From: Leishmania mexicana MHOM/GT/2001/U1103
Lineage: Eukaryota > Euglenozoa > Kinetoplastea > Trypanosomatida > Trypanosomatidae
DNA: 64,000 bases
NCBI RefSeq assembly: GCF_000234665.1
Contig: NC_018337.1
Span: 768,222 to 832,221, forward strand
Direction of reading: 5' to 3'
Shown piece by piece: positions 24,120 through 61,060 of this stretch. Under the pieces are notes generated by a model. That model did no database searches. It was not told the origin of the DNA and saw only the letters and a program-made list of their open reading frames with translations. The position numbers and the translations under genes were made by a program. The number at the start of each line of letters is the position of its first letter. Position 1 is the first letter of the stretch.

Positions 24120-24137
24120 CACTCGAACACCTCCTCA

Positions 24138-29810: not shown

Positions 29811-31284
29811 CGTCGGCAGCGTTGGCACAGAGATCAAGAAGAGTCCGATGCACGACCGACGGAGTGGGAAGGAAGAGTAAATCTGATAGTCAAACGCTGC
29901 GTGCACCTCTGAGTGGTGGCGCGAAGAGGGTGGCCGAGAGGGGGGAAAGAGATCACCGATACGAGTCCAACCGAGAAGACAGCGAGAGGAGGAACGAAAC
30001 AGTCATCACGAGCCAATAAAGAGGGACCGGTGAAGAGGGCGCCGTCAGAAGAAAATACAAGAGAAAACAAAATGAAAAGAAATGCCACGAGGAAGTCGTC
30101 ACACTGTGCCGAGCGAGAGGAGCAACAAACAGGGTTACTGTGCAAGGCCCTTCGCCGGCGCGAAACGGCAGCGGCTATAATGCGCACCGTCGTGCAGCAA
30201 CACAACGTGCAGACCAAGAAAGCCGCGTCGTGGACCGCGCAGAATTCTGCGTGTGATGGTTGGCAGACCACCTGCTTCTGTGGTACTGCTGATCACGCGA
30301 GGTGCGTGAAACAAGGCAAAACGTAAAAGAAAAACGAAAGAGAACGTTTTCGTTCTTATGGTGTCCTTGTTGTTCAGGATGCACTCTAAAATGTGTGCGG
30401 TGTGTGGGAGGTTGGGGTGTGGGGTGTCGTCATGCTTGCGGAGAGGGACGGGCAGTGAGAGAAAAAAGCACATGAGCGAGACCGCGGCGACGCAGTAAAC
30501 CAGTTGCAGAGATGACGAAAGAGGAAGGTGGTGCGAGTCAACAGCATCCGTCCATGTAGGCAGAGGCGCCCACACACAGGAGAGCGGACCGAGAGATGGA
30601 GAAGGAGCGAACGAGAAGGTTAAAAGAGGGTGGTGCACAGCACAGAAAACCGTGTCAAAATGGAGCAAGCGGCAACACACAACAGGGCTGCCCCTGATGG
30701 GCGGTTTCATCTGTTTTTTTTTTCCTTCGTGCGGTGTCTCCTGGTTGCCCCTCTGCTGCGTGGCATGTCCGTGTGTGTCTGTGTGTATCTACGGGAGGGC
30801 CTCACTCGTACAGGTCCCCGAAGGGTGCGTTGTCACGCACTCACATGCTGAAACATGTAGCGGCGTCTCGTCCTCGCCGTGTGCCGGTTCATAGTCGCAT
30901 TTCGTCTTCCTATTCAGTGCTGTCGGTTGTGCGTCCCGAGGAGAGCAACATATTCGAAAACGCACGCACACACAGAAACCCGAAGAATGCTCTGCGCGGC
31001 CCTCTTCCGCCGTTTCGATTCTTGCCCTTCAAAGGCAGGAAAGGATGCCGAGCACAGAGGAGAGGTCGGTCCATAGGGGTAGGAACCGGCCTAATCAAAA
31101 GAAAAAAGACAGTAGTCGCCGCCCTAACGTGAACGACGCGGCCTCCCCTCGTCATCTGCGCATGGCATCTGTCGTCCCATGTGATCGTGTGCGACTGTGC
31201 TAGAGTTCCCAGACGCACAGAGGAGCGGAGGGGGGAGGCATAAACAGGTGAGCCCATCGCCTAGAACAGCTTGCGTCAAATTCA
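29811..31284. other. Intergenic spacer upstream of the PDI-like gene
   Basis: The 5' region of the PDI-like gene. Pyrimidine-rich tracts on the minus strand lie near 30040-30080 and 30325-30350. No gene was recognised. Confidence 0.5.
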
Positions 31285-39261: not shown

Positions 39262-41763
39262 TCACTGCATCGTGAAGGCGAGGTCTGCGACGAGGGCGAC
39301 GTGGTCGGACGGGTATTTCTTGTTCGGCAAGGCAAAGTTCTCTGTCAGCTCGGCCTCTGAGGGGATGGGCACCGTGCGTAGCACTTCCAGTGAGTCTTCG
39401 GAGAAGAAGATGTAGTCGATCACCTCGCGAAAGGTGAGCGTGAAGTTCGTCCACGGCAGTGAAAGGTCGGTGCGCTGGTAGGCGTCCTGGAGGCGCACTT
39501 GCGGTCCGTAGAGCGCCTCATGAAATACCTTTGTGATGACGCGCTCCCTGCCCTCCCCATGCACCGGGTCCTTTTCTGCCTGCGCCTGGTTGCCTGCCTC
39601 TACAGGGACCTCTGCCAGATCAGCCGTAGTGGGTGTCGCCGTTTCTGCTGGCAATTTGTCTTGCCGCTTGCAATCCTTTCGCGCCTCCGTGGCGTGCGGC
39701 AGCGCTGCGACTTTGCCAAACAGCTCCCCGAGGTCGTCGTCGTAGCCGAGCAGTCGCGCGCAGCCCCACCAGAAGAGCCTCCCTTTGTCCCAGGACGGGT
39801 GATCGGCCTCCACCTGCCCTGTTGTGAGGAGACGGTATGCACCGGTCGGGTGCGTGCAGTTGAAATCACCACACATGACCAGAGGTCGGCGCCGCCGAGC
39901 GCGGTTGGCTAAACTGAGCGGCGGCGGCGCCGCTGGGTCGGCGTCGGGCGAGATCAGGGTGGAGTCGTTCAGCCAGTGCAGAAGCATGTACGCTTGGAGA
40001 ACGCGAATATGGCAAGCATTCGCGTGGTAAAAAAGATGCGTATTGCCGACCACGATCTCCTTGTCACTGGTCGATTCCCGCAGCACCACTCGCGCCCCAA
40101 TGGAGGTGACCGCGGAGAGCGCTTCCTTGAGCTCAGGGCAGGCGCCCACTCGCTCCGCCAGTTCCGGAAACATGATGGAGAGGGTTTGAAAGTTTAGCGG
40201 AACGGACGCGTACTGCACGAGCTGGAAGCGGGACTCGCGAAATAGGAAGCCGCAGCCCTCCTTCACCGATCCAGACTTGTTGCAGTACACCCCGTCGTAC
40301 CCGCACGCGCGCATCACAGGCAGAAAGTAGGATTGGAAGACGTCCCGACCGCACTCCTGCAAACAGACGATATCCATATGATAGGCCAAGAGTTCCTGCA
40401 CAATGCGCACCTTCCGGTTCTCAAGGTCGAGGATGTCGTCGGTGGCGAACGGGTATATCTTCGCCTTGGAGCTCTTCGATGTGCAGAAGTCATCGTAGAG
40501 GATGTTGTACGTCACGACGCGGAAAGCTGGGTAGTTGACGACCGTCGTCGTCTCCTGCCACCGCGGCACCGGCGGCGGTAGCTGGCGCACGACACTGGGC
40601 AGGCGCATCTCCGTCCAGAGGCCCGTGGCGGGGTCCAGCGAGACGCGCAGCATCATCTCCTTGCCCTGGAGTTCGCTGGTCGGCGTGAACGTTGGCGCGG
40701 TGCCAACCACGCGTACGGCCGCTTCGCCGTGGTTTGTGCTGCGCGTGTTCGCCGACGCCTCAGACAACACGCACCACTCGTAGCACAAGCTCTCCTTGGC
40801 CGCAAAGAGCAGCGACACGTCAGCGCACGCGAGCGGGAGCCCGACGTACGGGATACCTGGCGAGGTGATGGAGACGACCGTGGGCACGTTGTAGAGCACG
40901 CGTACGATCGTCTCGTTGACGCACAGCACCCGAGCATGTCTCCAAAAGACACCGTTGGGCAGCTCGGGGTTCAGCTCCGTGAAACGTTCGGTTTCGTTCA
41001 ACAACGGGAGGACAACCGACGTCGCCCCTGGCGCCGCCAGTGGACCATCCTCCTCCGCCATCCCTGCGAGATCGGAGGAGCGGCAGAAGGCGCGCACAAT
41101 AGGGCAGTCAGCGAATATTTTCTCCTTCGTCGTCCGCTTCGAGCTCTGCCCGCTCGACCGCGGCGGCGCAAAAAGCAGCCGGATGCGCCCCAGCGTTTTC
41201 GATGCCGTCTCTTTCTCCTCTCGAGCCATACTCTTTGATACCGTTGTGGTGCCGTGCTTCGGCTGCAACGGTGCCGCGGCGCCGGCCGCCGGTGCCGGCG
41301 CCTCGATGGACAGGTCGAGAGTGATGACCTGGCTGCCCTCTGGATGGAGCACCACCACCTTGTTCTTGGCCTGCATTGTGCGCTTCAGAAGTGGGCGAGC
41401 CGCAGCCGATGGCGACGTGGGTGATGATGAGCCGCAGGGCACGGAAGCAACGCTGTGTGATGAACCGGTGCGCGATGACGCTGATTCAATGGCCTGTGTA
41501 GCGCGACTCGCTTTGCTCCAGCGACGCTGCGCCTTCTCCGTTCGATAATCTGTCAGGAATGACGCAGAGGAGGGGGACGCGGTAGCAGTCTTGGTGGGCA
41601 GCTTCTTCTTCAGCGAGGTCGAGTCAGTGACTGGTGTGCTCGCGGCGGCGTCGTGCCGATGCGTGTCCACGTGCGGGGTAGTGGCGTCGACCGAGGTGGT
41701 ATGAGTAGCGCCAAGGGATGAGGCAAAGAGGCGAAAGCGGCGCAGCGGCAGCTGACGAAGCAT
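39262..41763 (-). CDS. PDE12-like 2',5'-phosphodiesterase/poly(A) exonuclease of the EEP fold, 833 aa
   Basis: The C-terminal half (about 412-833) is an endonuclease/exonuclease/phosphatase domain closest to vertebrate PDE12. Motifs in order are VVTYNILYDD, IVCLQECGRD (metal-binding Glu near 468), VGNTHLFYH, CGDFNCTHPTG (near 633), EVIDYIFF and YPSDHVALVADL. The PDE12-typical run LEVLRTVPIPSE before the last motif supports this subfamily over CCR4 or nocturnin. Human PDE12 is mitochondrial, removing poly(A) from mitochondrial RNAs and degrading 2-5A. Here the start ATG at 41763 gives MLRQLPLRRFRLFASS, Arg-rich and without acidic residues, which suits mitochondrial import. Residues about 30-400 are low complexity plus a beta-rich region matching the extra N-terminal region of PDE12. 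The frame extends to 41832 only through TTG. Confidence 0.85.
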   Translation of the reverse strand: MLRQLPLRRFRLFASSLGATHTTSVDATTPHVDTHRHDAAASTPVTDSTSLKKKLPTKTATASPSSASFLTDYRTEKAQRRWSKASRATQAIESASSRTGSSHSVASVPCGSSSPTSPSAAARPLLKRTMQAKNKVVVLHPEGSQVITLDLSIEAPAPAAGAAAPLQPKHGTTTVSKSMAREEKETASKTLGRIRLLFAPPRSSGQSSKRTTKEKIFADCPIVRAFCRSSDLAGMAEEDGPLAAPGATSVVLPLLNETERFTELNPELPNGVFWRHARVLCVNETIVRVLYNVPTVVSITSPGIPYVGLPLACADVSLLFAAKESLCYEWCVLSEASANTRSTNHGEAAVRVVGTAPTFTPTSELQGKEMMLRVSLDPATGLWTEMRLPSVVRQLPPPVPRWQETTTVVNYPAFRVVTYNILYDDFCTSKSSKAKIYPFATDDILDLENRKVRIVQELLAYHMDIVCLQECGRDVFQSYFLPVMRACGYDGVYCNKSGSVKEGCGFLFRESRFQLVQYASVPLNFQTLSIMFPELAERVGACPELKEALSAVTSIGARVVLRESTSDKEIVVGNTHLFYHANACHIRVLQAYMLLHWLNDSTLISPDADPAAPPPLSLANRARRRRPLVMCGDFNCTHPTGAYRLLTTGQVEADHPSWDKGRLFWWGCARLLGYDDDLGELFGKVAALPHATEARKDCKRQDKLPAETATPTTADLAEVPVEAGNQAQAEKDPVHGEGRERVITKVFHEALYGPQVRLQDAYQRTDLSLPWTNFTLTFREVIDYIFFSEDSLEVLRTVPIPSEAELTENFALPNKKYPSDHVALVADLAFTMQ

Positions 41764-42730
41764 GGAGGAAGACGAGTGGCAGCGGCACACCCGTAAACGT
41801 GCACACAGTGAACGGCGGTGACTAAAGCACAAGGGAGAAGCACTCGTGCCGGAGAATCATGCGGCCCAATGACAGACGTGTGCGCGAGCGCCGTCGCCGA
41901 ACCCAAGACACACAGGGAATCACGCGAAAAACAACTGATGGGAAAGAAAAAAAAGAAAAAGATAGGCAGCAGGTAGAGTCGTCACACCTATCCGATTTGC
42001 CGAGCCCTTGCGGCGAAGGTACACAGAGAAGCAGATCAGGTTGGAACGAGGAAAAAAAAGAAAAACGAAGAAGGTGCAGATGTTGAGATGGCGCCCGAGG
42101 GAGACGACGGGTGGGGAGGGGCATGAAAAGTGCGCGTGGGTGAAAGAAAGGGGAAGGGGGTAGGCTGCCTTTCTCTAGAGCGGTGCCGCCGCGGGTGACC
42201 GTGGTCTGCCGCCAGCGCCACCGGCGCCCGCCTACCCCAAACCCTCTGGAAAAGCTGACAGCTACGGTGCAGAAAGGAGACGCGTCGCTCTCTTGCGACC
42301 GTGCGACGGGAGCAGTCCCCACAACAGGCGAGCACCTCGGTGCGGTCGAAAAGGACTTGTTTGAGAGGGGAAGCGGTGAACCGTGCAACTGACAGCGTCC
42401 ATACAACACTCTGCGGGTAGGTAGGGGCGAGCCATCAGGGCGGAGCCGCGCGGACGCGGACGCGGACGGCTGCCCCTGTGTTGGTGTTTCTCCTCATTCG
42501 TCGGTTCGCTTCCGCTCAGCAGCGGAGGCTCAGGACAACCCTTTCAATGAACACACTAGTGCACACCTGCTCTCACGGATAGCCACACAGAGAGAGAGCG
42601 GCCACCCAGCACCACAGCGATGCCATCACCACCGCTCAGCCGCGGCGTGCGAGTAGCGGAAGGAGCAACGCGCCACCACTCTAGCTATTCTAGCCAGGAA
42701 AGCCGACTAGGAAAGCTGCCGATGTTGTGT
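41764..42730. other. Intergenic spacer
   Basis: The 3'UTR of the small membrane-protein gene and the 5' region of the PDE12-like gene, with T-tracts on the minus strand near 41945-41960 and 42050-42065. No gene is seen. Confidence 0.5.
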
Positions 42731-44206: not shown

Positions 44207-47200
44207 TCACAATTTTCGGCCGTCCACCAAGTCCTCCAACTCGTCGATCGACGACGGAATCCGTGACAGCTCCAGACGGCACACGACAGGGTTGTCTCGG
44301 CCGGTCTCTTTCGACTCCTCCGGCGTCAAGGACGGGTACGGGTTGCGAATGAAGCGCGAGCTCACAAACGGGTCCTCGACATCGATGAACATGCGGAACT
44401 TCGACATCTCCTTCGCGTTAAATCCGCGGTCCAGGTGGTGGCTAATCACGAGGCACCGGTTAGTGTCCACGTGGATCTTCTCGGCGGCTCGCATGTACAG
44501 ATCAAGGTGAGGTTGTCCCTTTATCTTCCAATCGTGCGCCTCCTCGCCGTCGATGGAGGCCACGAAGAGACGCGCCAACTGCGGGTTCGAGGCGAGCAGC
44601 TGCTTCAGCGTCCGGCTGTACGACACCACCGCCAGCGCCACACCGTTCTCCACCAGGCCCTTGAGCAGGCAAAAGAGGCTTGCATTGACAGGTGGCGGCG
44701 ACATGACCACCATCTCCGTCATCTCCGCCAATTTTGCATTCGCCAAGCCGTACCGCGTCTCGACGATCTCGGCATCTTCAGGTGTGCCCAACTCCAGGCA
44801 CAGCCCACGACGCTGCAAGATTTTGTCAATGCCACTAAACGAAATCTCGCCGTCCTCGTGCTGGTAGACGACCTTTTCGATAAACTCCTCCGGTGTTAGC
44901 GAGGGGATGGGCCGGTTGTGCAGCACCCGGTACGTATCGAAGAGCGTCTCCAGCGTCTTGTACCACGAGCGGTAACTGTATTCAAGGAGATTGTCGAAGA
45001 GGCAGTCGGAGAGAAGCACAACACCGTCAAACTGCGCGACCTGGCTCTGGCGCGTGCGCGGGATGGCGAGGTGCGTCGTTTCGGGGCAGCGGCCAAAGCC
45101 GGTGTGAAGGTGGATGCGCTCACCAGGGGTACCGTGGATGAAGCGCAGGCTCGTCCCCGAGAGGAGGTCGTACGTGATGTTCGCGCGGTCCACCACCACG
45201 CGCAGCACCGCGCCACGCCACTTGATCGTGAAGGAATACCGCTCAATCCTGGCTGGAAGGATGGGATGCACCTGCAGTCCCTTGTGGGACAGTCGAACCC
45301 CACCGCAACCGAAGATGAGCCCTGGCAGCGTCGACGCTATCGCGCTAAAGTGCAGGCCACCCTCGGCGGAGTGGACAATGTTATCGAGATCGATGTTGGC
45401 CAAGGAGCGCAGAAGTGGCATCGGCTGCGAGAAGTTTGACCGCGCTCGGCAGAGCGCGTGTACCATCACAAACAGCGACTCAGGCGAGTCAAACGTGCAG
45501 AGTGGGAGGTAATACTCGAAGTTCTGCAGAAAGTCGCGCTGGTCAAACTCGTCGGGGTAGAGCAGCATGCCAAGCAGCACCTCGGGCACGTCGATGAGCT
45601 TACGACGATAGATGTGGATCGGGTGGTAGTTCAGATGAAGCGGGTGCATGGCCCGCTCGTTGCCCCAGTTAATCAAGGTGTCGAAGTTGTCATGCACCAT
45701 GTACACACCGAGTCGCTCGTGGCGCTGCGGCACAACGATGCCCTCGCCGACGGCCTGCAGCTCGACCATCTCGTGCCGGGACATCCCTAGCGAAGCGAAG
45801 ACGCTGTTCAGCTGCTCCTCGGTAAGGTGCTCACGCTGACGGTCCAGAAACGAGAAGGCGGAGGCGATGTGCCTCCGCGCGGAGATGTTGACGTAGAAGT
45901 TGCCCGAGGCGTTGCTATTGTACTCATCGGTGCCGGCGATGTTGTCGAGGCGGAAGACGGTGTGGTCGTCCTGCCACTCCCCACATTGGGGCCAGATGCG
46001 AGCCGACTCCATCATCAGCTCGAGAAGCAGCAGCCGATCCTCGGCCGAGATGCTCTCCGCTGCCTCGTCGTAGAGGGCGATGAGGAAGCCGATCTCGGCG
46101 TTCACGTGGAAGCGAGCGTTGCTCACGTTGGCCGCATGCGTGGAGTGGACGCCGCTGATCGTTTTCAGTGGAAATACGGCGCCGTGGTTCATGGCGAGCA
46201 CGCGCGCATACTTCCGCGACTGTGGCAGCATGTGGTAGACGCTCTTGAGCAGTCGCAAGCACGCCTCCGGCTGCATGAGAAGGTAGTACAGTCCATAGTA
46301 GATGTACTCGGACAGGTTGAACTGCAGCCCGTCGCCGGCAGCCGAGAGCCCAGAGCGCGACAGCCCACCCTCCAGACCGTGGCTGACCATAAACATGCGA
46401 AACGCATTGTAGACAAAGGGCAGCGAGCTGCGGCTGGGACTCAGCTCGTCCTGCAGCTTGACATCCGCGTCAAACGTCTTCCAGAACAACTGGAGCGCCG
46501 CCTTCTGATCTGCAATCATCTCCTCAATCGTCGGCAGCGCTCGCGGGCGCTGTTCCGCGGTTTCGCGTGTGTGGCAGGCACGGAACGTCAGCACGACGCT
46601 ATCCGGCACCGTCTCGGGCGTCAGCGGCATCATGAATCGCTTCTTGATCACGTACGACTTGTGCGCCTTGTTGGGGCTGTGGAAGGTGTGGTAGCTCCAC
46701 GAGCCTGGTCGAACAAAGGCGGAGTTGTTACCGCCATCCCGATCGCCGTTACCGTGCTCCTTGCTCTCTGCATTGCTGCAGCTGCTGGCGCCGTCCCGCG
46801 CGCCGCTGCCGCCGCCCGCGCTCACATTGTACCGATCGCGCGAGAACGGCGACGTCGTATCGCTTCCGGATTCGAGAATCCATGGCGTGGCATCCACCTC
46901 CGCTTGTAGCAGGCGATATGTGTCGCCGTACTTCACCACACACTCCACCTCTGTGAATGTCGTCACCTCCTTGTACGAGGTCAGCGAGCACTGATGCACG
47001 TGATCCATTTGTTGGTGGGCAACATCCCAGCACTCCTGGTCAATGGAGAGCAGCACGACAAGCTCGATGCGATAGTTCAGGTCGCTGTGCGAGCAGTGCG
47101 TCCTGTGCGACGAATGTATCTGCAGTGCCCCGTCGGACATGCTATCCACACTAAGATTGTGCGGCGCGCCGGAGCCCGTCAAGCCGTTGCCGAAGCCGAT

Positions 47201-47752
47201 TTTAGCGTCGCTGCCGACAGACACCGGCGAGTCCTTGGCGCCGAGTCGGAAGTCGCTGTAGCACACCTGCGCACCCCACGTGCTCAGGTCGCTGAGCCCG
47301 ACTGTGCGCACGTATTTCGTGTTGAAGATGAGCCCCCCATCGGCGCTCATGACATCGGAGCAATAACTGCGATAAGCACCGTCGTCGAGGCTCAGCTTTC
47401 GGGATGGGATCGACGACAGCGTGCCTGATTCACCGTCCAGCATGCAGTCGAAGTCGACCGTGCAGATACTCGCCCCCACCTGATTAGTGCGAGGAATGCC
47501 CATGTACTCCGAAATGTCAGTCGGCTCTTCGTGGTAGATGCCATTCATTAGAACCTCCGTCTTGAAGCCAACCCTTTCCACCTCGCTCAGGTGTCGCAGA
47601 CCGAGGTTACCGTTGGTGCTGTACATGACACTATCAGTGACGCTGTTCGACACGAAGGCGGACGCCTCGATGCTCTGAACCACGTTTCTGCCCTCGAGAA
47701 GAAAAATGGGCTTCTTCGGGACTTCGTAGTCTCGCGCTAAGATTGGGTTCAT
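44207..47752 (-). CDS. GH65 disaccharide-phosphorylase-like enzyme fused to a degenerate beta-phosphoglucomutase/HAD domain, 1181 aa
   Basis: Residues about 20-890 form a glycoside hydrolase family 65 protein. The N-terminal beta-sandwich is followed by an (alpha/alpha)6 barrel with FPLKTISG, ARFHVNAEIGF and AGTDEYNSNASGNFYVN (general acid Glu610). The segment HSAEGGLHFSAIAS (794-807) aligns with the phosphate-binding segment of phosphorylases such as maltose, trehalose and kojibiose phosphorylase, favouring phosphorolysis over hydrolysis. Residues about 905-1125 align with beta-phosphoglucomutase (EYSYRSWYKTL, AVVSYSR, KGQPHLDLY). The nucleophile Asp of FDLDG is replaced by Leu914 while the second Asp is kept as Asp916, and the acidic motif IV reads VISHHLDRG. 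The HAD part is therefore probably inactive. The sugar substrate cannot be read from sequence. The start is the first ATG after a TA tract; the frame extends open to 47983 through UTR-like sequence. No signal peptide or peroxisomal targeting tail (…GRKL) is convincing. Confidence 0.85.
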   Translation of the reverse strand: MNPILARDYEVPKKPIFLLEGRNVVQSIEASAFVSNSVTDSVMYSTNGNLGLRHLSEVERVGFKTEVLMNGIYHEEPTDISEYMGIPRTNQVGASICTVDFDCMLDGESGTLSSIPSRKLSLDDGAYRSYCSDVMSADGGLIFNTKYVRTVGLSDLSTWGAQVCYSDFRLGAKDSPVSVGSDAKIGFGNGLTGSGAPHNLSVDSMSDGALQIHSSHRTHCSHSDLNYRIELVVLLSIDQECWDVAHQQMDHVHQCSLTSYKEVTTFTEVECVVKYGDTYRLLQAEVDATPWILESGSDTTSPFSRDRYNVSAGGGSGARDGASSCSNAESKEHGNGDRDGGNNSAFVRPGSWSYHTFHSPNKAHKSYVIKKRFMMPLTPETVPDSVVLTFRACHTRETAEQRPRALPTIEEMIADQKAALQLFWKTFDADVKLQDELSPSRSSLPFVYNAFRMFMVSHGLEGGLSRSGLSAAGDGLQFNLSEYIYYGLYYLLMQPEACLRLLKSVYHMLPQSRKYARVLAMNHGAVFPLKTISGVHSTHAANVSNARFHVNAEIGFLIALYDEAAESISAEDRLLLLELMMESARIWPQCGEWQDDHTVFRLDNIAGTDEYNSNASGNFYVNISARRHIASAFSFLDRQREHLTEEQLNSVFASLGMSRHEMVELQAVGEGIVVPQRHERLGVYMVHDNFDTLINWGNERAMHPLHLNYHPIHIYRRKLIDVPEVLLGMLLYPDEFDQRDFLQNFEYYLPLCTFDSPESLFVMVHALCRARSNFSQPMPLLRSLANIDLDNIVHSAEGGLHFSAIASTLPGLIFGCGGVRLSHKGLQVHPILPARIERYSFTIKWRGAVLRVVVDRANITYDLLSGTSLRFIHGTPGERIHLHTGFGRCPETTHLAIPRTRQSQVAQFDGVVLLSDCLFDNLLEYSYRSWYKTLETLFDTYRVLHNRPIPSLTPEEFIEKVVYQHEDGEISFSGIDKILQRRGLCLELGTPEDAEIVETRYGLANAKLAEMTEMVVMSPPPVNASLFCLLKGLVENGVALAVVSYSRTLKQLLASNPQLARLFVASIDGEEAHDWKIKGQPHLDLYMRAAEKIHVDTNRCLVISHHLDRGFNAKEMSKFRMFIDVEDPFVSSRFIRNPYPSLTPEESKETGRDNPVVCRLELSRIPSSIDELEDLVDGRKL

Positions 47753-51887: not shown

Positions 51888-54800
51888 TTACATGGACGAC
51901 TTTGACCGCAGGCGCTCGCGGGCTTGCATCAGATGCAGCTCCCCGGGAGTGAAGAAGCCGTGCTTCGTGCCGCTTTTGCGCACGACTGGTCGTACTGTGT
52001 GCAATTTCAGCAACTGCGACGCTGTCGATGACTGGTAGTGATCCGACACCCGACGACCGCTGCTTCTGCCCCGCGCCGTAGAGGAGCGCGTGCGCAGTGC
52101 CGTTGACGCAGGAGTGACGCCGGGGATGCCGCGCATCGACGAAGCCGCTAACTCCGCATTCACACGCGGCGAGCCCAACACCGTCCCCACGGGCGGCGAC
52201 ACGCCCACGCCACCACGCGGACGGTTAGAGATGTAGGGAGGGCCAGACACTACCGTTTCGGCAGTGGTCATACGCTTCCCTACAGGCCGACCAAAGTAGA
52301 AATAGTCTTCATCGATGTCCGACCACGCCTGCTGCATGCCACCGGCGCCCCCCTGCAGCTCTTTCTCGGCCGTGGTCGCCGCCAACAATGCATGCGGCGC
52401 CACACGAGAAAGGTACTCCGCGTTCACGACGAAGTTGCCCCTCGTGATATGTGTGACCGGCTCGCGAGTCACAGGATCTATGCCGTCGTCGCTGTTGGTC
52501 GTTCCACCACGAAAACTGTCGTCCTTCAGCCGGTTCTGGGAAAGGTGACGCAGCTGCGTGAGATCTGCGATCGTAGAACGCCGGCGCCGCACTGGCGATT
52601 GTGTCGTGTAGGTCGCCTCAGCCTCATCGGTGCGCACGTCATTCGCTCCTCCCGGCATTACAACCTTTGGCACGACGCTCAGCGCCACAACAGGCGCCGC
52701 TCCGCTTGTCTGCATTGAGCTGACCGTGGGTGTCCACGGACCCGCTATGACCGGTGCGGCCACGCTGCCGTACAAGAGGCTAGTGGCGCTGGCATTCGGC
52801 ACCGTGCGTGCGTCTGGGTACACCGCGTGCACCTCCACGGCGGATGAACCGGCTGCATTCGTGGATGCGGCAGCAGGAGGCACAACCGCTGGCCGGACAT
52901 CTCGCAGGAGCGCCTCATGTGATACCAGAGGTATACCAGCTGCCTCGCCATAGGTTGGGCGAGAACGCTTCGACAGCCATCCGTCATCAGCGTCATCGAG
53001 CTGGTTGTGGGCGGGCGGAGAAAGTGGCATCAACCTCAGGGCGTTCGCCACATTGCCGTCGGCGGCGCCGGGCAGCGCCACCGTTGCCGCGCCGTGGCCC
53101 TTGGAAGAAGAGTTTCCCTTGTTGCCTTTCGCGCCGGAAAACAGCGCTTGCGAAAAGCCCGCGGATGCAGGGTTCGCGCTCGCCTCCGCCACCGAGGTGA
53201 GCGACGTCGGCTGCCAGGCTCGCTTTGTGGCCGCGCCGCTGGTCCTTGCCCCTCCCGTCGACTTCTCGCTCCTTGAGCGTGGCGGCGGCGGCCCGACAGA
53301 GACGGGAGCGGGGCGGAGACGAGGCGGCCTCGCGCCTGCCTTGGCCAGGAAGGTGGCCGTGACACACTGCGCCACTCCCGTCAGCAATTTGCTGAGACGC
53401 CTGTAGAGCTCTTCCACCTTCACGTCCTGTGGCGCGCCGGCCAGGTCGCTGACGTCCCACTCGTTCAGGCGTATCAAAGTCACCTTGTCTTGGAGCTGCA
53501 AGAGGGAATCCTTCGCTGCGACAATGGGGCGCAGCGCGCTCAGGTATACAGCATGCCCCTGAACTGTGGAGGTTTGCGCCGGCGCAGCAGAGGTTGTCTT
53601 TGCATTGCGGCTATGACGGGAAGCGCCGGTTGCGGCATCGTGCGAAGACGCTGCCGACCGAGTGAGCTGGGGCTGCTGCACGTTCGCAAGCGGTGCCTCT
53701 GTGCTCGGCCCCAAGGACGCCGTCGCTGGCTGCTGCAGTTGCACGAACCCCGTCGACTCCGGCGGCGCCGGCATGGCGGATGGTAAGGAGCCTCCTGACG
53801 GGAGCTGCGACGACGGACCGCCCATCACGGCGGCGGCGGCCAGTCCAGACGACCCCGAAGACGACGACGACGACCGCGACGATCCCGACGACGAAGAGGA
53901 GCTGGCGCTCGATGGAGATGATCGGAAAGCCAGCGTGGGCCTACTGGTCGCCGCCGCTGTTGTCGTGTGCAATGATATAGCACTGGGGACCGGGAGTTGC
54001 GGAGCGGGAATGGTGTGGGGGACGGCATCGGTACCTCTTGTCGTCTGAGGTGGGGTGGCTGTGGGGTGGCTCACCGCTATCGTCGCCGACGATGCGTTTG
54101 CGGAACTCGCCGGTGGCAACTCTGCAGCCGCCTGGGTAAGCGCTGTGTGAAAGTCCAAAGCTGCTTTGCGCACCTCCTCAGCGACCGTCGCCGTCGTCAT
54201 TCGCAATTCGTTCGAGCGCTGAATCATGATCTCGCGCGGTCGAGCCGCACCAGCCTCACCCGCAGTCGACGCGGGGACTGCCACAGCAGGAGCCTCTGTA
54301 GCTTCACTCGTCAACACGCCTGCCAGCGGCACGCCGGTGTGCAGGAGAACCGGTGGCGCAATTGACGGCGGCGCCATCAAGCCAGCTGGCGCCAGTGTAG
54401 GCGCTTGCAGAGAGGGCTGGACGGGCACCATCAGCAAAGGTGCCGGCTGCGGCGCAAGAGGTATCGAAAGGGGGTCGTCGACGGATGGCTGCGATGGCGG
54501 TGGTGCTGGTGGTGGTGGCAGAGGTGACAGTGGCGCTGTGCCGCTGGTCGCCGCACCTTCCACGCAGTAGCGGCGCAGACGACCGGCGCACTTCTCCACC
54601 ATGCGGGCGCGGTTCAGCAGGTCGTGCCATTCCCTGTCCATCATGCATACCACAGCTTTACTCTCATCGGCGTGGTAGCCACCACCGAGCGAGCGGCTGC
54701 GGGCGGAGCGACCTCGTGTCGCGGCCGGAGATGAGCTTCCACTACGCGCGGCAGCCGATGGTGTGCGCCGCTGTCTCGCGGCCTGCGTTGTTGTAGCCGC

Positions 54801-57740
54801 CGGCTGCCCAGGCGTCGCTACGGCGGCACGGACGCGCTGGTGCTTTTGTCGCTTCTCATCTCGCGCTGCCTCGACGCCCCATATCTTGTCGTGAAGGTTC
54901 TTCTCCACAACCTGCGTAAGCAGCCGCATCACCTCCTTGTGCTTGTCCACCCCCTTCATCAGGGATTCCACTCGGTGCTGGATGTATTTGTTGAGGACGC
55001 CATTGATGGCGCGCGACACGGCGTGGACGGAGTTCTGCATGTCGCCCACGGCCTCGAGGAACCTCTCTTTTTCAGGCCAGTCCACCGTCCGCAGCGCCTT
55101 GTTGAGTCGATGCATGCGTGACAGGTGTTGGTTGATGCTCTCGAGCAGGTGCATGACGACAACGCGGCGGAAGGGTTTTGCGGCCGAGTAGTCCTCAAAC
55201 TTCTGCCCAGCACGCTTGCGGTGCGTCTTCGACTTGACGGCGGTGACGCCAGGCGCCGAACCCTTCATAGAGCGCATCACATCCCGCACCTGGCGACTCT
55301 CGGAAATGCACTCCTCAATCAGGTGCACACGCTCTTCGCGGTCCGGCACATTGCCGGGCAGCATGTTCATCTTGTAGCGCTCCGCAAACGCAACGCAGCA
55401 CTCCTCGCTCCGGTGCAGGAGCAGCTCGATCTCGTCATCCGTGAGGTACAGCGCCGGCTCCATCTCCTCTTGTTCCTCCAGAGTCGTCTTACGAATCGTC
55501 TCTGCGGCGGCGGCGTCCTTTTTCTTCACAAAGTCCTCCTGCCGTCGCACAAAGGCCTTGAAGTGCTCCGGCAGTTCGTCAGGGGCGACCTCGATGCCGA
55601 GCGCGTTTACCACCGGCTCGTCCTTGGCCCCCTTGCTGCGCTGACGCTTCTCTGGGAAAGTCAAAACAAGACCGTCGTCAAACGGTGCAAGCCTCTTCCA
55701 CAGTCCGTTGCGCGCCGCCAAAGACGCCCCGCGCTCCGACACTTTGTGCGAGGCGGGGTGGTTGTCCACGTCCACGTCGCTGTCCGCTGTATCATCCGCG
55801 CCGCTCTCTTCCTCAGCGGAGGCCGCCGCGCCGCGTTTCGCGGAGGCGGAGCGCTTGCCGGCCGACCGGGACCGACTGAGATGTCGCGCCAGCTTCGTCA
55901 GCCCGCCAAAGAGAAGAAACGAATGGTCGTCGCCGCACGGTGCGCACCGCGTGAAGGCGAGCGGCGGCAAGGGCGGGTGGACGCGCACTTCAGCACGCCA
56001 CATGTGCTCCCCTTGCACCGTTGGCACAAGGTTCAACTCCATCACTGTTGTCACCGGCGACGCTGCTATGCCGACTTCATCGAGCGATGACTCAAAGCCG
56101 CCTGTGACAAGCATGCGGCAGCCAACGACACAGGACTCGTGCCCTGCACGGCCCGCCGCCTCGCCGCGGCACCGCAGCTGCTCCCAGCGCTCATTCGCCA
56201 TGTCAAACGCCCAGCAGTCACCAAGCACCTCATTCTGCGCGTCGTAGCCGCCGTAGACAATCATGTACGGGCCGTACCGCACTGCCGTGTGCAGAAAGCG
56301 CGGCCCCGGCCCCGCAGCCTCGCCTTCGTCCAGGTCGCTGCCACTGTCCGCCTCCTCCGCACCATCATGTGGTAACACCCCCTGTCGGCCTCGCCTGGAC
56401 GAGTCAGCACCTGTTTGGATGAGGCGAACCGCGTACGTGGCGGAGTTGATCGCAAGCAGCTGCCCCGACACGTGCAGATCATCTGTCAGCCCACCAAAGA
56501 CAAAGAGCTCCTGGCCAAAGTGCACGGTGGTATGATACGCCAGCGGAAACTGGGTGGCGGGTTGGATGGCACGCCAGGTCTGATCACTCAGGTTCATGTC
56601 GAAGAGCAGAGATACGAAGCCGATTGAGACAGGCGGGAAAGACGGGGGAAGCGGCGCAGCAGTCCCACCTGCACGCGCCAACGTAGTCGCCGCTTGCCCG
56701 GCACGTCGATGCAGGAGTGGGCACAGGCATCGATACCGCGGCGCGCGCAGCGGGTCGGTGCTCCACACCTGCCTCTTCTCCTTTGAAACCGCCGCACCGC
56801 CGGGCCCGATGCCGCCCACCACCACGAGTCGGTCAAACGACTCGACCACTGTCACCGTGTGACCATAGTGGCCGGCTGGGACGAGCTGTCGTCCCTCGAT
56901 GCGGCGCCAGTTGCCCGTCAGCATAGAAAATTCGTACAGCTCCTGCTCCACGGTGCGGACGCCAAAGGAAACGCCGCCGTAGACGAGCAGGCGCTGACCG
57001 CGATCTTTGCGGCTCAAGTACGACGCCGCTGCGTGAAAAGCGAGGGCGGTGGGGCGAAAACGCCGGTAGTCTAGCACCGGCATATACGAGACGTAGCGGA
57101 GAACCTTGTAGTTGTGCGGATGCGCCTTTTTCTTCGCCGGTGCTAGAGAGGCCCATACCTCACGCCGAGACGCGCCTGGTGGCGGCACGCTCCTGGCAGC
57201 ATCATCTGCAGCGATGGCCTTGCCCTCGAGGCCCGCTGCATTGGAAAACCACTTCAGCGGCGTGGCCACACTGCGCAACTCATTGAGGTGTCGCGTGACA
57301 AGGCGGCCTTCGCCCTCACCCGACTTTCGCATGGCGTCCTCCACCTCAGCCGCGCTGCGCTTCACATTGATCTGCTCGCGGCGTAGAGCATCCAGCACAT
57401 CGTACCAGTCCATGGTGGCCCGCGTGCCGGAAGGCGGGGCAGCGGCGGCGGCGGACTCTTCTCGAGCTCCGGCGCCCTCGACAGAGCCTTTGGTCCCCTC
57501 TTCGTCGTCAGCATAGTCGTCGTGTGCGCTGGTGTCACTGTCGTCGCTGTAGTCCTGCTCGGCATTGAGCGCCTCGAGGCGCAGGGCAATTCCAGCGCCG
57601 ATATCCACAGTGTGATCCTTCTGCTGCAACAGCTCCTCAATATGGATGGGACGCTGCGCGATGGTGCTGCCGTCTGCGCTCACGAGCTGAACTTGCACAG
57701 CGTCGCCGCGCAGCGGTAGAGGCGGCGAAGCACCGCTCAT
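51888..57740 (-). CDS. Giant Kelch-repeat protein, 1950 aa
   Basis: The ATG at 57740 begins SGASPPLPLRGDAV, followed by a short beta-like head with an acidic stretch. Residues about 250-615 hold a beta-propeller of Kelch type: LLVYGGVSFG, LVVVGGIGPGG, LFVFGGLTDD, MIVYGGYDAQ, MLVTGGFESS and FLLFGGLTKL give about six GG blades. Helical sequence at about 770-950 (DDEIELLLHRSEE through LHDKIWG) has coiled-coil character. The remaining 1000 residues are Ala/Ser/Pro-rich and mostly disordered, with a poly-Ser run near 1280-1297. A more conserved-looking tail contains ISNRPRGGVGVSPPVG. Kelch propellers bind protein partners, so a scaffold role is likely, but no partner can be inferred. The domain order resembles Kelch proteins of plants and protists in which the propeller is followed by a conserved helical region. 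Confidence 0.85.
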   Translation of the reverse strand: MSGASPPLPLRGDAVQVQLVSADGSTIAQRPIHIEELLQQKDHTVDIGAGIALRLEALNAEQDYSDDSDTSAHDDYADDEEGTKGSVEGAGAREESAAAAAPPSGTRATMDWYDVLDALRREQINVKRSAAEVEDAMRKSGEGEGRLVTRHLNELRSVATPLKWFSNAAGLEGKAIAADDAARSVPPPGASRREVWASLAPAKKKAHPHNYKVLRYVSYMPVLDYRRFRPTALAFHAAASYLSRKDRGQRLLVYGGVSFGVRTVEQELYEFSMLTGNWRRIEGRQLVPAGHYGHTVTVVESFDRLVVVGGIGPGGAAVSKEKRQVWSTDPLRAPRYRCLCPLLHRRAGQAATTLARAGGTAAPLPPSFPPVSIGFVSLLFDMNLSDQTWRAIQPATQFPLAYHTTVHFGQELFVFGGLTDDLHVSGQLLAINSATYAVRLIQTGADSSRRGRQGVLPHDGAEEADSGSDLDEGEAAGPGPRFLHTAVRYGPYMIVYGGYDAQNEVLGDCWAFDMANERWEQLRCRGEAAGRAGHESCVVGCRMLVTGGFESSLDEVGIAASPVTTVMELNLVPTVQGEHMWRAEVRVHPPLPPLAFTRCAPCGDDHSFLLFGGLTKLARHLSRSRSAGKRSASAKRGAAASAEEESGADDTADSDVDVDNHPASHKVSERGASLAARNGLWKRLAPFDDGLVLTFPEKRQRSKGAKDEPVVNALGIEVAPDELPEHFKAFVRRQEDFVKKKDAAAAETIRKTTLEEQEEMEPALYLTDDEIELLLHRSEECCVAFAERYKMNMLPGNVPDREERVHLIEECISESRQVRDVMRSMKGSAPGVTAVKSKTHRKRAGQKFEDYSAAKPFRRVVVMHLLESINQHLSRMHRLNKALRTVDWPEKERFLEAVGDMQNSVHAVSRAINGVLNKYIQHRVESLMKGVDKHKEVMRLLTQVVEKNLHDKIWGVEAARDEKRQKHQRVRAAVATPGQPAATTTQAARQRRTPSAAARSGSSSPAATRGRSARSRSLGGGYHADESKAVVCMMDREWHDLLNRARMVEKCAGRLRRYCVEGAATSGTAPLSPLPPPPAPPPSQPSVDDPLSIPLAPQPAPLLMVPVQPSLQAPTLAPAGLMAPPSIAPPVLLHTGVPLAGVLTSEATEAPAVAVPASTAGEAGAARPREIMIQRSNELRMTTATVAEEVRKAALDFHTALTQAAAELPPASSANASSATIAVSHPTATPPQTTRGTDAVPHTIPAPQLPVPSAISLHTTTAAATSRPTLAFRSSPSSASSSSSSGSSRSSSSSSGSSGLAAAAVMGGPSSQLPSGGSLPSAMPAPPESTGFVQLQQPATASLGPSTEAPLANVQQPQLTRSAASSHDAATGASRHSRNAKTTSAAPAQTSTVQGHAVYLSALRPIVAAKDSLLQLQDKVTLIRLNEWDVSDLAGAPQDVKVEELYRRLSKLLTGVAQCVTATFLAKAGARPPRLRPAPVSVGPPPPRSRSEKSTGGARTSGAATKRAWQPTSLTSVAEASANPASAGFSQALFSGAKGNKGNSSSKGHGAATVALPGAADGNVANALRLMPLSPPAHNQLDDADDGWLSKRSRPTYGEAAGIPLVSHEALLRDVRPAVVPPAAASTNAAGSSAVEVHAVYPDARTVPNASATSLLYGSVAAPVIAGPWTPTVSSMQTSGAAPVVALSVVPKVVMPGGANDVRTDEAEATYTTQSPVRRRRSTIADLTQLRHLSQNRLKDDSFRGGTTNSDDGIDPVTREPVTHITRGNFVVNAEYLSRVAPHALLAATTAEKELQGGAGGMQQAWSDIDEDYFYFGRPVGKRMTTAETVVSGPPYISNRPRGGVGVSPPVGTVLGSPRVNAELAASSMRGIPGVTPASTALRTRSSTARGRSSGRRVSDHYQSSTASQLLKLHTVRPVVRKSGTKHGFFTPGELHLMQARERLRSKSSM

Positions 57741-58701
57741 GACGGCGCGCTGGGATACAGAAAGATTTGTAAAAAAAAGGGGCAATCTATCCTTGGGTAC
57801 GTCTATGTGAACATGTACGTCTACTACGTGTGATGTCTCCTTCTCTCTGTAGCAGCGTACAGGCCTGTGAATACGGACACACAAACAAGAAGTGGTTGCT
57901 TGCGTGCGTCAGGGGGAAGAGAGAGACTCCTCGATGCCGCCTCCAGCGATTCACCTCACCGTGATGTACCGGAAGTCTCACCCGCGTTTATGTGCTTTTT
58001 TTTCGTGGTTCCGCGTTTTGTGCGACAGGGGGGTGGGCAGGAGGTGAGGGGGCGACCGTCTCTCTCCCTCTCTCTGCCTCGCCTCCTCCGTTCCGTGCAA
58101 CGGCAGAGAGTATGTGTAGGTGTACAGGTGTATGTATGTATGTGCGTTCCTCTGCGCAAGCTGTGACGGCTGAATTGCAGTTCCCAGGGATCATGAACAC
58201 GCACACAAAAAATAAGAAAAGGAAAACGCATGAAGGCGGCAGGACGCAATAGTAGACGCAAGCGGTGCGCGCACCGTGTTGAGCGACTCGGCAAACGCGG
58301 CAGGGCGTGAGCGAGGGGAGGGGAGGACGTTTTGCGGCGTTTGCTCCCTCATCCGCCCCTACCCTCATATGCGGTGGACTCAGCACGACCTGTAGCGCTC
58401 GGGCTGTGCACCGCTGAGCCACTGCTGCGCCGACGACAAGCATAGATGTCAGTTGAGCAACAGCCGGAAAAACAACAACAAAAAAGGGCGTATGTTCCCT
58501 AGGAGACCTTCTTTTGTTTCTGCTGTGGTACGCACGACATCTGCTCCGTGGAGCAGGCGACATCGTCGAAACGAATCCTTTTTAAAGTCGATGAAGGGAA
58601 ATCAGCGCGTAGGAGTCCTCCCATCGTGTGCGGCCATGGGACGCGATTAAGGAACGAGGCTCGAAAATGGCAAGCACGCAGCTGCGACCCACAGCGCCGC
58701 A
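57741..58701. other. Intergenic spacer
   Basis: The 5' region of the Kelch gene and the 3'UTR of the DEAH helicase gene. A T-rich tract near 57768-57780 on the coding strand lies close to the Kelch ATG. No gene is seen. Confidence 0.5.
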
Positions 58702-61017
58702 CTACACACTCTCGCGCTTGACTTTGCACGGGTGTGCGCTACTTTCCGCCTCATGAGCACGGCGCAGCACCTGCGCAATCTCGCCGTCTGGGATTTCGCT
58801 GAGGTCCGTGTAGAAGTCACTGACGTCCAGCAGCCAGCCCACCTCCACTGCTGAGGCGGTTCGGATAAACGTCCCGGAGTCCCCTTGCACCTCCAGACGG
58901 TCAAACACAATCCAGGTCGGAAGCGCGCGTGACTTGTGCGTCGCCGCCAGCACGGACTGACGATGCAGCGTCACATTCAAGGCGTCCCGGACAGTGCGGT
59001 AGACTCGCGTCGTCGGGTCCGCTCCGGCTCTATGAGTGATGGGTGTCACGGGAGTCAAGAAGGCGACCTGTGTGAAGAATCCCTCCAGCACCGCCTTGCG
59101 GAGCGCCACCGTGTCCACGTACTCGCGCTCCGGGATGTAGGTGGACTGCACTGGTATCGTAAGTTGGCCCATTAACCGCCGCAGCTGGTTGTACACCTGC
59201 ACCGCCTGCTGCAGGGTCTGGTGTCGTAGGTAGTTCTCGTAGCAGAAGCGCTTACCGTTCTGCTGATTCTTGAAGTACGCGTGAAAGACGCGAAAGAGCG
59301 CAACGTGGTCGCCGTCGGCATCGTCGAAGCGCGCGTGCGCCTCGCGAGCCTCGGCCAACCGCGATGGTGGACGGCTGAACGCGTTTCCAGCCTCCAGCAT
59401 CGCCGCCACCACCGCGGCGTCGGCACCGCACCCGTGCTTGGATGCCATGAGCAGCATTCGTGCCAAGCAGACATCCACGGGGAACACTGCCATGCGTCGC
59501 CCAAAGTCTGTGAGCTGCAACCCGTCATCCACGGCGCCGAAGTACAAGAGCTGGTAGAATGCGTCGCTCATGCCCTGATCCGAGGGCGGGTCGATGAAGG
59601 GGAACTCGCACGGGTTAGCGACACCAAGAGTGAGCAGCAGCAACACAGTGTTCACAATGTTCGTGCGTAGTATCTCCGGGTGCGTTTGATCGGGAAAGGT
59701 GGCAAAGTCGGCCGACGTGTAGAGGCGGAAGCACTTCCCAGGCCGCGTACGGCCAGCGCGGCCCTTGCGCTGTTCTGCGGAGGCCTTGCTAATAACCGCC
59801 GGCAGCAAGTAGTCCACGCGCGCCTCGGAGTTGTACAAGCTCTGCTTCTGATACCCACAGTCCACAACGTAGACGATGCCGTCAATTGTGACGGACGTCT
59901 CAGCAATGTTCGTGGCCACGACAACCTTGCGCGTGTTGGGGGGATAGGCAGCAAACACCTTCTGCTGCTCCTGGAGGCTAAGAGAGCCGTAGAGAGGCAG
60001 CACCACCACCTCCGTCGGCCGCGCCGGCCGCGCCAGGTCGTCCGCCGACGTCTTGAGAAGCGTCAAGCCCGTTCCGGGTCCCTGCACCGACGCTTCTTGC
60101 TCCTTGAAGGCGGCTGCAGAGCTCGAGTCGAGGGCCTGGTGAAGTGCCGCGACCGCCCGCTCAATCTCCGCCTCGCCAGTCAAGAAGCAGAGAATATCCC
60201 CGGCGGGCTCACGTTTATGCAGCTGAAGCACGCACGACACGGTCGCCTCCACGTAATCGCGTACCGGCTGTGGCATGTAGAAGACGTCCACGTCATGCAT
60301 GCGCCCCGAGACGTGCACGAGAGGCGAACCAGGGAAGTAGGACTGAATCTTTGCCACATCCAGCGTGGCCGACATGACCACCAGCCGGAAACGCGGACGC
60401 CGTGTGAGGAGCCGCTTCAGCAGGCCGAGAACCACATCCGTGTCAATCGTCCGCTCGTGCGCCTCGTCCACCACCACGACACTGTATTTCTTGAGGTCCG
60501 CATCCGTGAACGCTTCACGAAGCAGCATGCCATCCGTCATGTACAGCACTCGCGTGGCGTCGCACTGGCGCGAGTCAAAGCGGACGTGATAGCCGACTTG
60601 CGCACCGAGGGGCACGTCCATCTCTTCGGCCACACGCGTGGCAACGGAGATGGCAGCGATACGACGCGGCTGCGTACATGCGATGACGCCGGTGAAGGTG
60701 TCCTGCAGCTCCGCAAGAAAGTGAGGAACCTGCGTCGTCTTGCCGCTGCCCGTCTCGCCCACGAGCAACGTGACAGCGTTGGTTCGCACTGTCTCCTGTA
60801 TAAGGTGGCGCTTCTCGTACACAGGCAGTCGCTGACGCGACTGCAACAGCTGACGGTAGCGGGCTGAGAAGGGTTGCTGCGTGAAAGGACTCAATGCGGA
60901 GCTGGAGGTGCAGACAGCCACGTCAGGACGCTTCTTCGGGAGTTGGGAGACGAGTGTGTCGCCGAGGCCGACCTCGCCGTTCTCGGCAGCTTCCTCGCGC
61001 ACGCGCTTGAGGGCCAT
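58702..61017 (-). CDS. PRP43: DEAH-box RNA helicase of the Prp43/DHX15 type, 771 aa
   Basis: ATP-dependent RNA helicase. Family members release spliceosomes and act in ribosome assembly. Motifs seen are PFTQQPFSARYRQLL and LPVYEKR (the Prp43-type lead-in), Walker A GETGSGKTT (87-95), TQPRRIAAISVA, DEAHERT (184-190), MSATLD (215-220), FLTGEAEIE, TNIAETSVTIDGI and QRKGRAGRTRPGKCFRLYT. The ratchet, winged-helix and OB-fold tail follows, with FIRTASAVEVGWLLDVSDFYTDL matching the Prp43 C-terminus in spacing. Length is close to yeast Prp43 (767 aa). The ATG at 61017 lies eight bases after a predicted acceptor. An in-frame ATG at 61131 would give 809 aa with a basic/hydrophobic leader encoded across the pyrimidine tract. 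The Prp43 assignment rests on overall likeness; other DEAH members of that clade are less likely. Confidence 0.85.
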   Translation of the reverse strand: MALKRVREEAAENGEVGLGDTLVSQLPKKRPDVAVCTSSSALSPFTQQPFSARYRQLLQSRQRLPVYEKRHLIQETVRTNAVTLLVGETGSGKTTQVPHFLAELQDTFTGVIACTQPRRIAAISVATRVAEEMDVPLGAQVGYHVRFDSRQCDATRVLYMTDGMLLREAFTDADLKKYSVVVVDEAHERTIDTDVVLGLLKRLLTRRPRFRLVVMSATLDVAKIQSYFPGSPLVHVSGRMHDVDVFYMPQPVRDYVEATVSCVLQLHKREPAGDILCFLTGEAEIERAVAALHQALDSSSAAAFKEQEASVQGPGTGLTLLKTSADDLARPARPTEVVVLPLYGSLSLQEQQKVFAAYPPNTRKVVVATNIAETSVTIDGIVYVVDCGYQKQSLYNSEARVDYLLPAVISKASAEQRKGRAGRTRPGKCFRLYTSADFATFPDQTHPEILRTNIVNTVLLLLTLGVANPCEFPFIDPPSDQGMSDAFYQLLYFGAVDDGLQLTDFGRRMAVFPVDVCLARMLLMASKHGCGADAAVVAAMLEAGNAFSRPPSRLAEAREAHARFDDADGDHVALFRVFHAYFKNQQNGKRFCYENYLRHQTLQQAVQVYNQLRRLMGQLTIPVQSTYIPEREYVDTVALRKAVLEGFFTQVAFLTPVTPITHRAGADPTTRVYRTVRDALNVTLHRQSVLAATHKSRALPTWIVFDRLEVQGDSGTFIRTASAVEVGWLLDVSDFYTDLSEIPDGEIAQVLRRAHEAESSAHPCKVKRESV

Positions 61018-61025
61018 GAGGTGCG

Positions 61026-61060
61026 CTGTATGCAGTGTACCAGATGCGTGGCAATACAAA
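61026..61060 (-). promoter_or_regulatory. Predicted polypyrimidine tract and spliced-leader acceptor for the DEAH helicase
   Basis: The coding strand reads TTGCTTTTCTTTTTG, then CATACAG with AG at 61026-61027, the first AG after the tract, eight bases before the ATG at 61017. Confidence 0.5.

What the first reader, a model, noticed from the sequence alone, without database searches (positions are those of the whole stretch)
44207..47752. GH65 phosphorylase-like enzyme fused to a HAD domain that has lost its nucleophile
A bacterial-style pathway pairs a GH65 phosphorylase (disaccharide + Pi to glucose + beta-glucose-1-phosphate) with beta-phosphoglucomutase. Here the two are fused, but aligning EYSYRSWYKTL with the family puts Leu914 at the nucleophile Asp, keeps Asp916 as the acid/base residue, and replaces the acidic motif IV with VISHHLD. 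The GH65 half keeps its general acid (Glu610 in TDEYN) and a phosphorylase-like GGLHFSA segment. This suggests an active phosphorylase with a HAD domain kept for structure or regulation. The natural disaccharide in Leishmania is unknown to me; trehalose phosphorylase activity is known from the related euglenid Euglena.
Basis: partly seen in the sequence, partly recalled or inferred. Interest (0 to 1): 0.75.

Follow-up and report, generated by a model that had tools for sequence, protein, structure and literature searches.

The report
Twice-disabled sugar enzyme of Leishmania
This Leishmania gene descends from a bacterial-style double enzyme that splits disaccharides, but both halves have lost residues their chemistry needs while the protein has stayed intact, so its likely job is something other than catalysis.

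Summary
The ORF is real: 44207-47752 (-), 1181 aa, GH65 barrel plus bPGM-like HAD. The inference 'active phosphorylase' is not supported. In 30 A-type proteins (window plus 29 homologues) the GH65 subsite -1 Trp, Lys and Gln and the phosphate-site Lys are absent in every row; the same columns are intact in 32 of 32 bacterial-type reference rows and 5 of 5 outgroup rows. Glu610 itself is replaced in 6 of 30, although Asp609, Tyr611 and Asn612 never vary. The HAD nucleophile is absent in 30 of 30. A second fused paralogue, B, on another contig is degraded differently; searches of the genome showed no other bPGM-type HAD, no GH37 trehalase and no trehalose-phosphate synthase. Best reading: an ancient double pseudoenzyme kept for a non-catalytic role. 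This questions published inferences that trypanosomatids phosphorolyse trehalose, though which paralogue those papers mean could not be checked.

The parts
44207..47752 (-). Whole coding sequence of paralogue A, 1181 aa, GH65-HAD fusion
   Evidence: 29 homologues
46553..47752 (-). Residues 1-400: N-terminal region; only 1 of 30 A rows still matches the GH65 N-terminal Pfam domain
   Evidence: domain bounds approximate
45308..46552 (-). Residues 401-815: helical linker and GH65 (alpha/alpha)6 barrel
   Evidence: PF03632 at 489-809; bounds approximate
45128..45307 (-). Residues 816-875: GH65 C-terminal beta domain
   Evidence: PF03633 at 820-873
46352..46354 (-). Ser467 at the phosphate-site Lys column; Lys in 0 of 30 A rows
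46310..46315 (-). Leu480-Ser481 at the subsite -1 Trp-Asp columns; Trp in 0 of 30; Asp in 0 of 30 (MAFFT) or 5 of 30 (profile HMM)
45923..45925 (-). Glu610 at the general-acid column; Glu in 24 of 30 A rows, else Thr 2, Gln, Met, Leu, Arg
45587..45592 (-). Asp721-Val722 at the subsite -1 Lys-Gln columns; Lys and Gln in 0 of 30
45476..45487 (-). Ser756-Pro-Glu-Ser759 at the two phosphate serines: second Ser replaced by Pro (MAFFT) or Pro-Glu inserted between the serines (HMMER)
45350..45352 (-). His801 at the phosphate-site His column; His in 18 of 30, Asn 6, Asp 6
44363..45037 (-). Residues 906-1130: bPGM-like HAD domain, degenerate
   Evidence: TIGR02009 at 966-1105; HHalign against bacterial HAD E 5.1e-14
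45005..45013 (-). Leu914-Ser-Asp916: motif I; nucleophile Asp in 0 of 30 (Leu 29, Gln 1)
44732..44794 (-). Residues 987-1007 ELGTPEDAEIVETRYGLANAK: most conserved cap stretch
   Evidence: invariant columns
44429..44449 (-). VISHHLD (1102-1108) at motif IV; Glu and Asp in 0 of 29 rows with letters

Best explanation
The gene is paralogue A of an ancient pair of GH65-bPGM fusion proteins. A fusion of the kind still found in bacteria (inverting alpha-glucoside phosphorylase joined to beta-phosphoglucomutase) entered the lineage and was duplicated before the sampled kinetoplastid lineages split. On the stem of clade A the sugar pocket of the GH65 half and the phosphoryl-transfer centre of the HAD half were both lost, and the long protein has been kept since. 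It therefore most likely does not phosphorolyse or hydrolyse alpha-glucosides and does not interconvert glucose phosphates. It most likely works as a non-catalytic protein: a binding, sensing or scaffolding partner. Shown: fusion, residue losses, their sharing across the clade, persistence of full length. Inferred: loss of activity (about 0.8 for GH65, 0.93 for HAD). Speculative: binding of a phosphosugar by the remnant HAD site (0.3) or pairing with paralogue B (0.2).
For: In 30 A rows Trp, Lys, Gln of subsite -1 and the phosphate Lys are absent throughout; the HAD nucleophile, Lys145 and motif IV columns are lost throughout (profile HMM agrees; HHalign agrees for motif I). Controls in the same alignment: 32 of 32 bacterial-type rows and 5 of 5 outgroup rows keep the GH65 sites (second Ser is Thr in 4 of 32). 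The general acid is replaced in 6 of 30 while its neighbours Asp609, Tyr611, Asn612 are invariant; in FjGH65A the Glu-to-Gln change left under 0.1% activity (PMC8626586), and Gln is what Leptomonas pyrrhocoris has. A is one clade (100/100) on a stem of 1.63 changes per site. No other TIGR02009 HAD in the genome. Conservation: 29 of 29 homologues are uninterrupted predicted proteins beginning with Met; A and B identities track each other over 78 species pairs, means 60.9 and 61.4%.
Against: Glu610, Ser756 and His801 survive in this protein, and Glu610 in 24 of 30 rows. The A clade sits on a long branch, where alignment is least safe; the subsite Asp is Asp in 5 of 30 rows in one alignment. Catalytic columns are not lost significantly more than other conserved columns (permutation P 0.21 for GH65, 0.15 for HAD). 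No structure, no assay, no codon-level selection test. Motif IV Glu is missing also in otherwise intact outgroup rows, so that loss alone does not mean inactivity.
Confidence: 0.75

Rival explanations
1. A GH65 enzyme with a rebuilt sugar pocket: Glu610 still protonates the leaving group, but the donor is not a plain alpha-glucoside, so the subsite -1 set was dropped. The HAD half is structural.
For: Glu610, Ser756 and His801 are present, and Glu is kept in 24 of 30 A rows. Motif DSPESL, NYHP and the acid-loop neighbours are strongly conserved. Clade A arose by a burst of change on its stem (1.63 per site).
Against: The general acid is lost in at least three places on the tree (Leptomonas pyrrhocoris, Phytomonas, P0027-P0029). 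The phosphate His is Asn or Asp in 12 of 30, the phosphate Lys is gone in 30 of 30, and the column nine before His, where I place the hydrolase base, is Ile, Val or Leu in 30 of 30 (that placement assumes no gap).
Confidence: 0.15
2. One reading: an ordinary active GH65 phosphorylase (for trehalose or a related disaccharide) with a dead HAD domain.
For: Glu610 and GGLH segment present; published annotation of a trypanosomatid trehalose phosphorylase (PMC3916237, PMC4301809, PMC8483307: passages).
Against: Subsite -1 Trp, Lys, Gln and phosphate Lys lost in 30 of 30 rows. Trehalose did not stimulate respiration of Trypanosoma cruzi epimastigotes (PMC12153322, passage), though that is another genus.
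Confidence: 0.04
3. Division of labour: A keeps the phosphorylase step and paralogue B the mutase step.
For: In 5 of 20 B rows the HAD nucleophile is Asp, and B keeps Asp+2 in 20 of 20 and the distal phosphate columns Ser116 and Asn118 in 20 of 20.
Against: In the Leishmania B rows the nucleophile column is Glu; Lys145 is Arg in 20 of 20 and Arg49 is Pro in 20 of 20 B rows. A has lost its sugar site.
Confidence: 0.03
4. A functionless gene in slow decay.
For: Loss of catalytic residues; paralogue B also degraded.
Against: Lengths of 30 A proteins are 1051-1275 aa, 27 of them 1136-1250; no inner stop or X in 29 of 29 database rows (such rows are predicted proteins, so stops are partly excluded beforehand); invariant runs, most of all in the HAD cap; GC3 0.80, highest of 8 window genes measured.
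Confidence: 0.03

Closest known systems
Bacterial GH65-bPGM fusion proteins (e.g. Paenibacillus P0075-P0077, Hyphomonadaceae P0050)
   Same: Same two domains in the same order, about 1000 aa; 26% identity to P0075 in the barrel, 19% in the HAD
   Different: They keep the GH65 catalytic and binding columns (31 of 31 fusion rows) and mostly the HAD nucleophile; the window protein has lost both sets
Paralogue B of the same genome (L001:460-3921:-)
   Same: Same fusion; 25% identity over a 749-column alignment
   Different: B keeps subsite Trp (20 of 20) and Asp or Glu, but lost the acid in 18 of 20 and Lys and Gln in 20 of 20; its HAD keeps Asp+2 and motif IV Asp
Kojibiose and maltose phosphorylases (6w0p, 3wiq, 1h54)
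   Same: Best solved relatives of the barrel by sequence
   Different: No HAD domain; full -1 subsite and phosphate site (PMC8626586, section 7)
Beta-phosphoglucomutases (8h5s, 1lvh)
   Same: Best solved relatives of the HAD part
   Different: Nucleophile Asp, Lys and motif IV Glu-Asp, all absent here

Membership tests
GH65 (homology) | Sequence match to the GH65 catalytic and C-terminal domain models above cut-off | tested here: met
   PF03632 133.1 bits (cut-off 27), PF03633 47.5 bits (cut-off 22); 30 of 30 A rows match both at E <= 0.001
Active GH65 enzyme | Subsite -1 Trp, Asp, Lys, Gln | tested here: not met
   Leu480, Ser481, Asp721, Val722; Trp, Lys, Gln 0 of 30; Asp column alignment-dependent
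Active GH65 enzyme | General acid Glu | tested here: met
   Glu610 present in this protein; but kept in only 24 of 30 A rows
GH65 phosphorylase | Phosphate site of Lys, His and two consecutive Ser | tested here: not met
   Ser467 for Lys; Pro-Glu at or between the serines; His801 present
GH65 hydrolase | General base Glu (Glu616 of FjGH65A) | tested here: inconclusive
   Column His-9 is Ile, Val or Leu in 30 of 30 A rows; its placement assumes no gap against FjGH65A, which was not in the alignment
Beta-phosphoglucomutase | Nucleophile Asp and Asp+2 in motif I | tested here: not met
   Leu914 for the nucleophile; Asp916 present
Beta-phosphoglucomutase | Lys of motif III and Glu-Asp of motif IV | tested here: not met
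   Gln1080, Ser1104, His1106
Beta-phosphoglucomutase | NCBIfam curated score for bPGM | tested here: not met
   TIGR01990 18.5 bits against 189.4; TIGR02009 36.9 against 153.35
Pseudoenzyme | Intact fold with measured absence of activity | not testable with these tools

The most novel reading that the evidence does not exclude
Leishmania carries two fused GH65-bPGM proteins in which the sugar-splitting and the phosphate-moving centres are damaged in both copies: A before the sampled lineages split, B later, since unnamed environmental relatives of B keep most of the sites. The pair has been turned into a phosphosugar-binding or scaffolding regulator, and Leishmania has no working trehalose phosphorylase at all.
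Probability: 0.35. Interest if true: 0.7.

Novelty: new variant of a known kind. Interest (0 to 1): 0.52.

Why it matters
Papers infer or consider that trypanosomatids can use insect or plant trehalose because they carry a trehalose phosphorylase (PMC3916237, PMC4301809, PMC8483307; passages). If A, and in Leishmania B too, cannot catalyse, that inference falls for Leishmania, and for Phytomonas as far as its A copies go (Thr at the acid in both). A fusion in which both enzymes are disabled, yet kept across the family's many genera, would be a clean system for asking how an enzyme becomes a non-enzyme, because relatives with intact sites still exist.

Tried and rejected
Rejected: reciprocal division of labour between A and B as the main reading, my own first idea (note). 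It rested on taking the FDFD upstream of motif I in B as the nucleophile; alignment put motif I at VVFELDS, with Glu at the nucleophile. Rejected: Asp909 as nucleophile. Rejected: a conserved C-terminal glycosome signal; the ends of the A rows differ. No positive result: whether catalytic columns are lost faster than other conserved columns (P 0.21 and 0.15).

The stop check was empty, as my script had stripped stops; one search repeated it on the raw rows.

Led nowhere: structure prediction; a script stopped by a cut pipe (redone); a paper look-up with an unusable term (redone); the genome-contig scan with P0050, which returned only its own source; Rfam, tRNA and tandem-repeat scans of the window, with no match. 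That B was not seen in T. brucei, T. congolense or Phytomonas is no evidence of loss; those searches were word-limited and the second listed 120 of 578.
Full report
What is there. The reverse strand at 44207-47752 encodes 1181 residues from ATG to stop. Pfam recognises the GH65 barrel and C-terminal domain; NCBIfam recognises the beta-phosphoglucomutase subfamily of HAD proteins in the last quarter, well below its cut-off. One search listed 29 homologues of 1051-1275 aa. The named ones run through Leishmania (94% identity to the L. infantum cluster), Porcisia, Novymonas, Leptomonas, Trypanosoma and Phytomonas; nine come from unnamed contigs and one (P0018) had its organism cut off in the listing. 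I take the genome for a Leishmania, probably L. mexicana, from these relatives and from contig sizes; the species is recalled knowledge, not a tool result.

The HAD half. In MAFFT, in a profile HMM built without clade A and in HHalign of clade A against bacterial fusions, motif I GVVLLSDCLFDN lies on AVIFDLDGVITD without a gap. Leu914 takes the nucleophile and Asp916 the second Asp. Over 30 A rows (window plus 29) the nucleophile column is Leu 29, Gln 1; the second Asp is Asp 15, Glu 15; the Lys145 column is Arg 15, Gln 13, Pro 2; motif IV Glu and Asp are absent in 29 of 29 rows with letters. The motif II Ser/Thr is kept in 30 of 30 and a cap Lys in 27 of 30, but Arg49 in 0 and Asn118 in 2 of 30. 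The bPGM residue numbers and their roles are recalled, not taken from a call. So the transfer chemistry looks lost, while part of the phosphate-contacting surface survives. Against over-reading: the motif IV Glu is also missing in B, C and outgroup rows (0 of 20, 0 of 11, 0 of 5).

The GH65 half. PMC8626586 (passages; section 7) states that subsite -1 is made by Trp343, Asp344, Lys538 and Gln539, conserved in the GH65 phosphorylases and hydrolases compared; that the phosphate site of phosphorylases is a Lys, a His and two Ser; and that hydrolases use a Glu base. In the window protein these columns are Leu480, Ser481, Asp721, Val722; Ser467, His801, and Ser756 followed by Pro-Glu. Over 30 A rows Trp, Lys, Gln and the phosphate Lys are 0 of 30 in MAFFT; in the profile alignment they are 0 of 29, 0 of 30, 0 of 30 and 0 of 28 rows with letters. 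The Asp is 0 of 30 in MAFFT and 5 of 30 in the profile. Controls in the same alignment: 31 fusion proteins of bacterial type and E. coli YcjT keep all nine GH65 columns (second Ser is Thr in 4 of 32), and so do five outgroup proteins, three of them from EukProt. These 31 rows are my choice: P0050 and 30 from the 120 listed (578 found); an organism name was seen for only nine of them. Of the 28 rows whose HAD aligns (27 fusions and YcjU), the nucleophile is Asp in 27 and Glu in one (P0075); the other four carry the HAD, with FDLDG, at the N-terminus.

The general acid. Glu610 is kept in 24 of 30. It is Gln in Leptomonas pyrrhocoris, Thr in two Phytomonas, and Met, Leu, Arg in three unnamed proteins, while Gly607, Asp609, Tyr611, Asn612, Phe619, Tyr620 and Ser624 are invariant. 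In FjGH65A the matching Glu-to-Gln change left less than 0.1% activity.

The second copy. The genome search found one other GH65 gene, on contig C20, also fused to a HAD domain: paralogue B, 25% identical. In 20 B rows the subsite Trp (20) and Asp (17, Glu in 3) are kept, Lys and Gln are lost (0 of 20), the acid survives in 2, the nucleophile is Glu 14, Asp 5, Asn 1, and the Lys145 column is Arg in 20. In the Leishmania B rows the acid is Thr and the nucleophile Glu. No other TIGR02009 HAD, no trehalose-phosphate synthase and no GH37 trehalase were found in the genome (single-family searches that score only the best candidates).

History. In trees with the catalytic columns left out (quick, 63 rows; careful, 45 rows) the kinetoplastid, environmental and outgroup rows together are one side of a branch against the bacterial-type rows (100/100). 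Clade A is one clade (100/100) on a stem of 1.63 changes per site. B (100/100) lies inside a group of unnamed environmental proteins (C), and B plus C has 100/100. A, B and C together against the outgroup has 93/90, just short of a star. The 11 C rows keep the nucleophile in 11, subsite Lys in 11 and the acid in 9, but Gln in 3. Three unnamed proteins (P0027-P0029) branch first in A and already lack the same sites. So A lost its centres before the sampled lineages split, and B later. A permutation test does not show that catalytic columns go faster than other conserved columns; it is consistent with their no longer being protected. A and B have similar identities among 13 species or species groups with both (78 pairs, means 60.9% and 61.4%, Spearman 0.91; for one entry A is from L. 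infantum and B from L. donovani). This speaks for lasting constraint on A.

Function. Most likely a non-catalytic protein. The surviving cap Lys and Ser/Thr columns, the strongly conserved cap run ELGTPEDAEIVETRYGLANAK and the persistent length fit a binding or scaffold role; this last step is inference.

In print. PMC3916237 calls the protein alpha,alpha-trehalose phosphorylase, present in all sequenced trypanosomatids; PMC4301809 repeats it for Phytomonas; PMC8483307 names Tb927.11.10670 as a putative one (passages). Which paralogue each means could not be checked. PMC4711719 lists Tb927.11.10670 among the genes of a lateral-transfer study (passage). PMC12153322 reports trehalose as ineffective for T. 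cruzi respiration (passage). PMC4336185 reports the phosphorolytic activity of Euglena gracilis (passage). I found no paper describing these proteins as inactive in searches; I saw listings of an open-licence library, and passages only of the papers cited.

Limits.

Noticed in passing
L001:460-3921:- (contig C20 of the same genome): A second GH65-HAD fusion, 1153 aa, with Thr at the general acid and Glu at the HAD nucleophile, annotated elsewhere as glycosyl hydrolase.
   Followed up: yes
window 19365-24122 (-): One open frame of 1585 aa holds a protein kinase domain, leucine-rich repeats and a dual-specificity phosphatase domain.
   Followed up: no
P0075 (Paenibacillus, 89 member sequences): A bacterial GH65-bPGM fusion cluster has Glu at the HAD nucleophile, the same change as Leishmania paralogue B.
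   Followed up: no
P0097, P0100, P0103, P0109: GH65-HAD fusions in the opposite order, with the FDLDG motif near residue 15-19.
   Followed up: partly
window 62172-63806, 7775-9724, 28509-29906, 39262-41832, 51888-57884, 58702-61131 (all -): Neighbours by Pfam: dynamin/EHD-like GTPase, 8-oxoguanine DNA glycosylase, thioredoxin-domain protein, endonuclease/exonuclease/phosphatase, Kelch protein, DEAD/HA2 helicase; none of them a sugar-metabolism gene.
   Followed up: no
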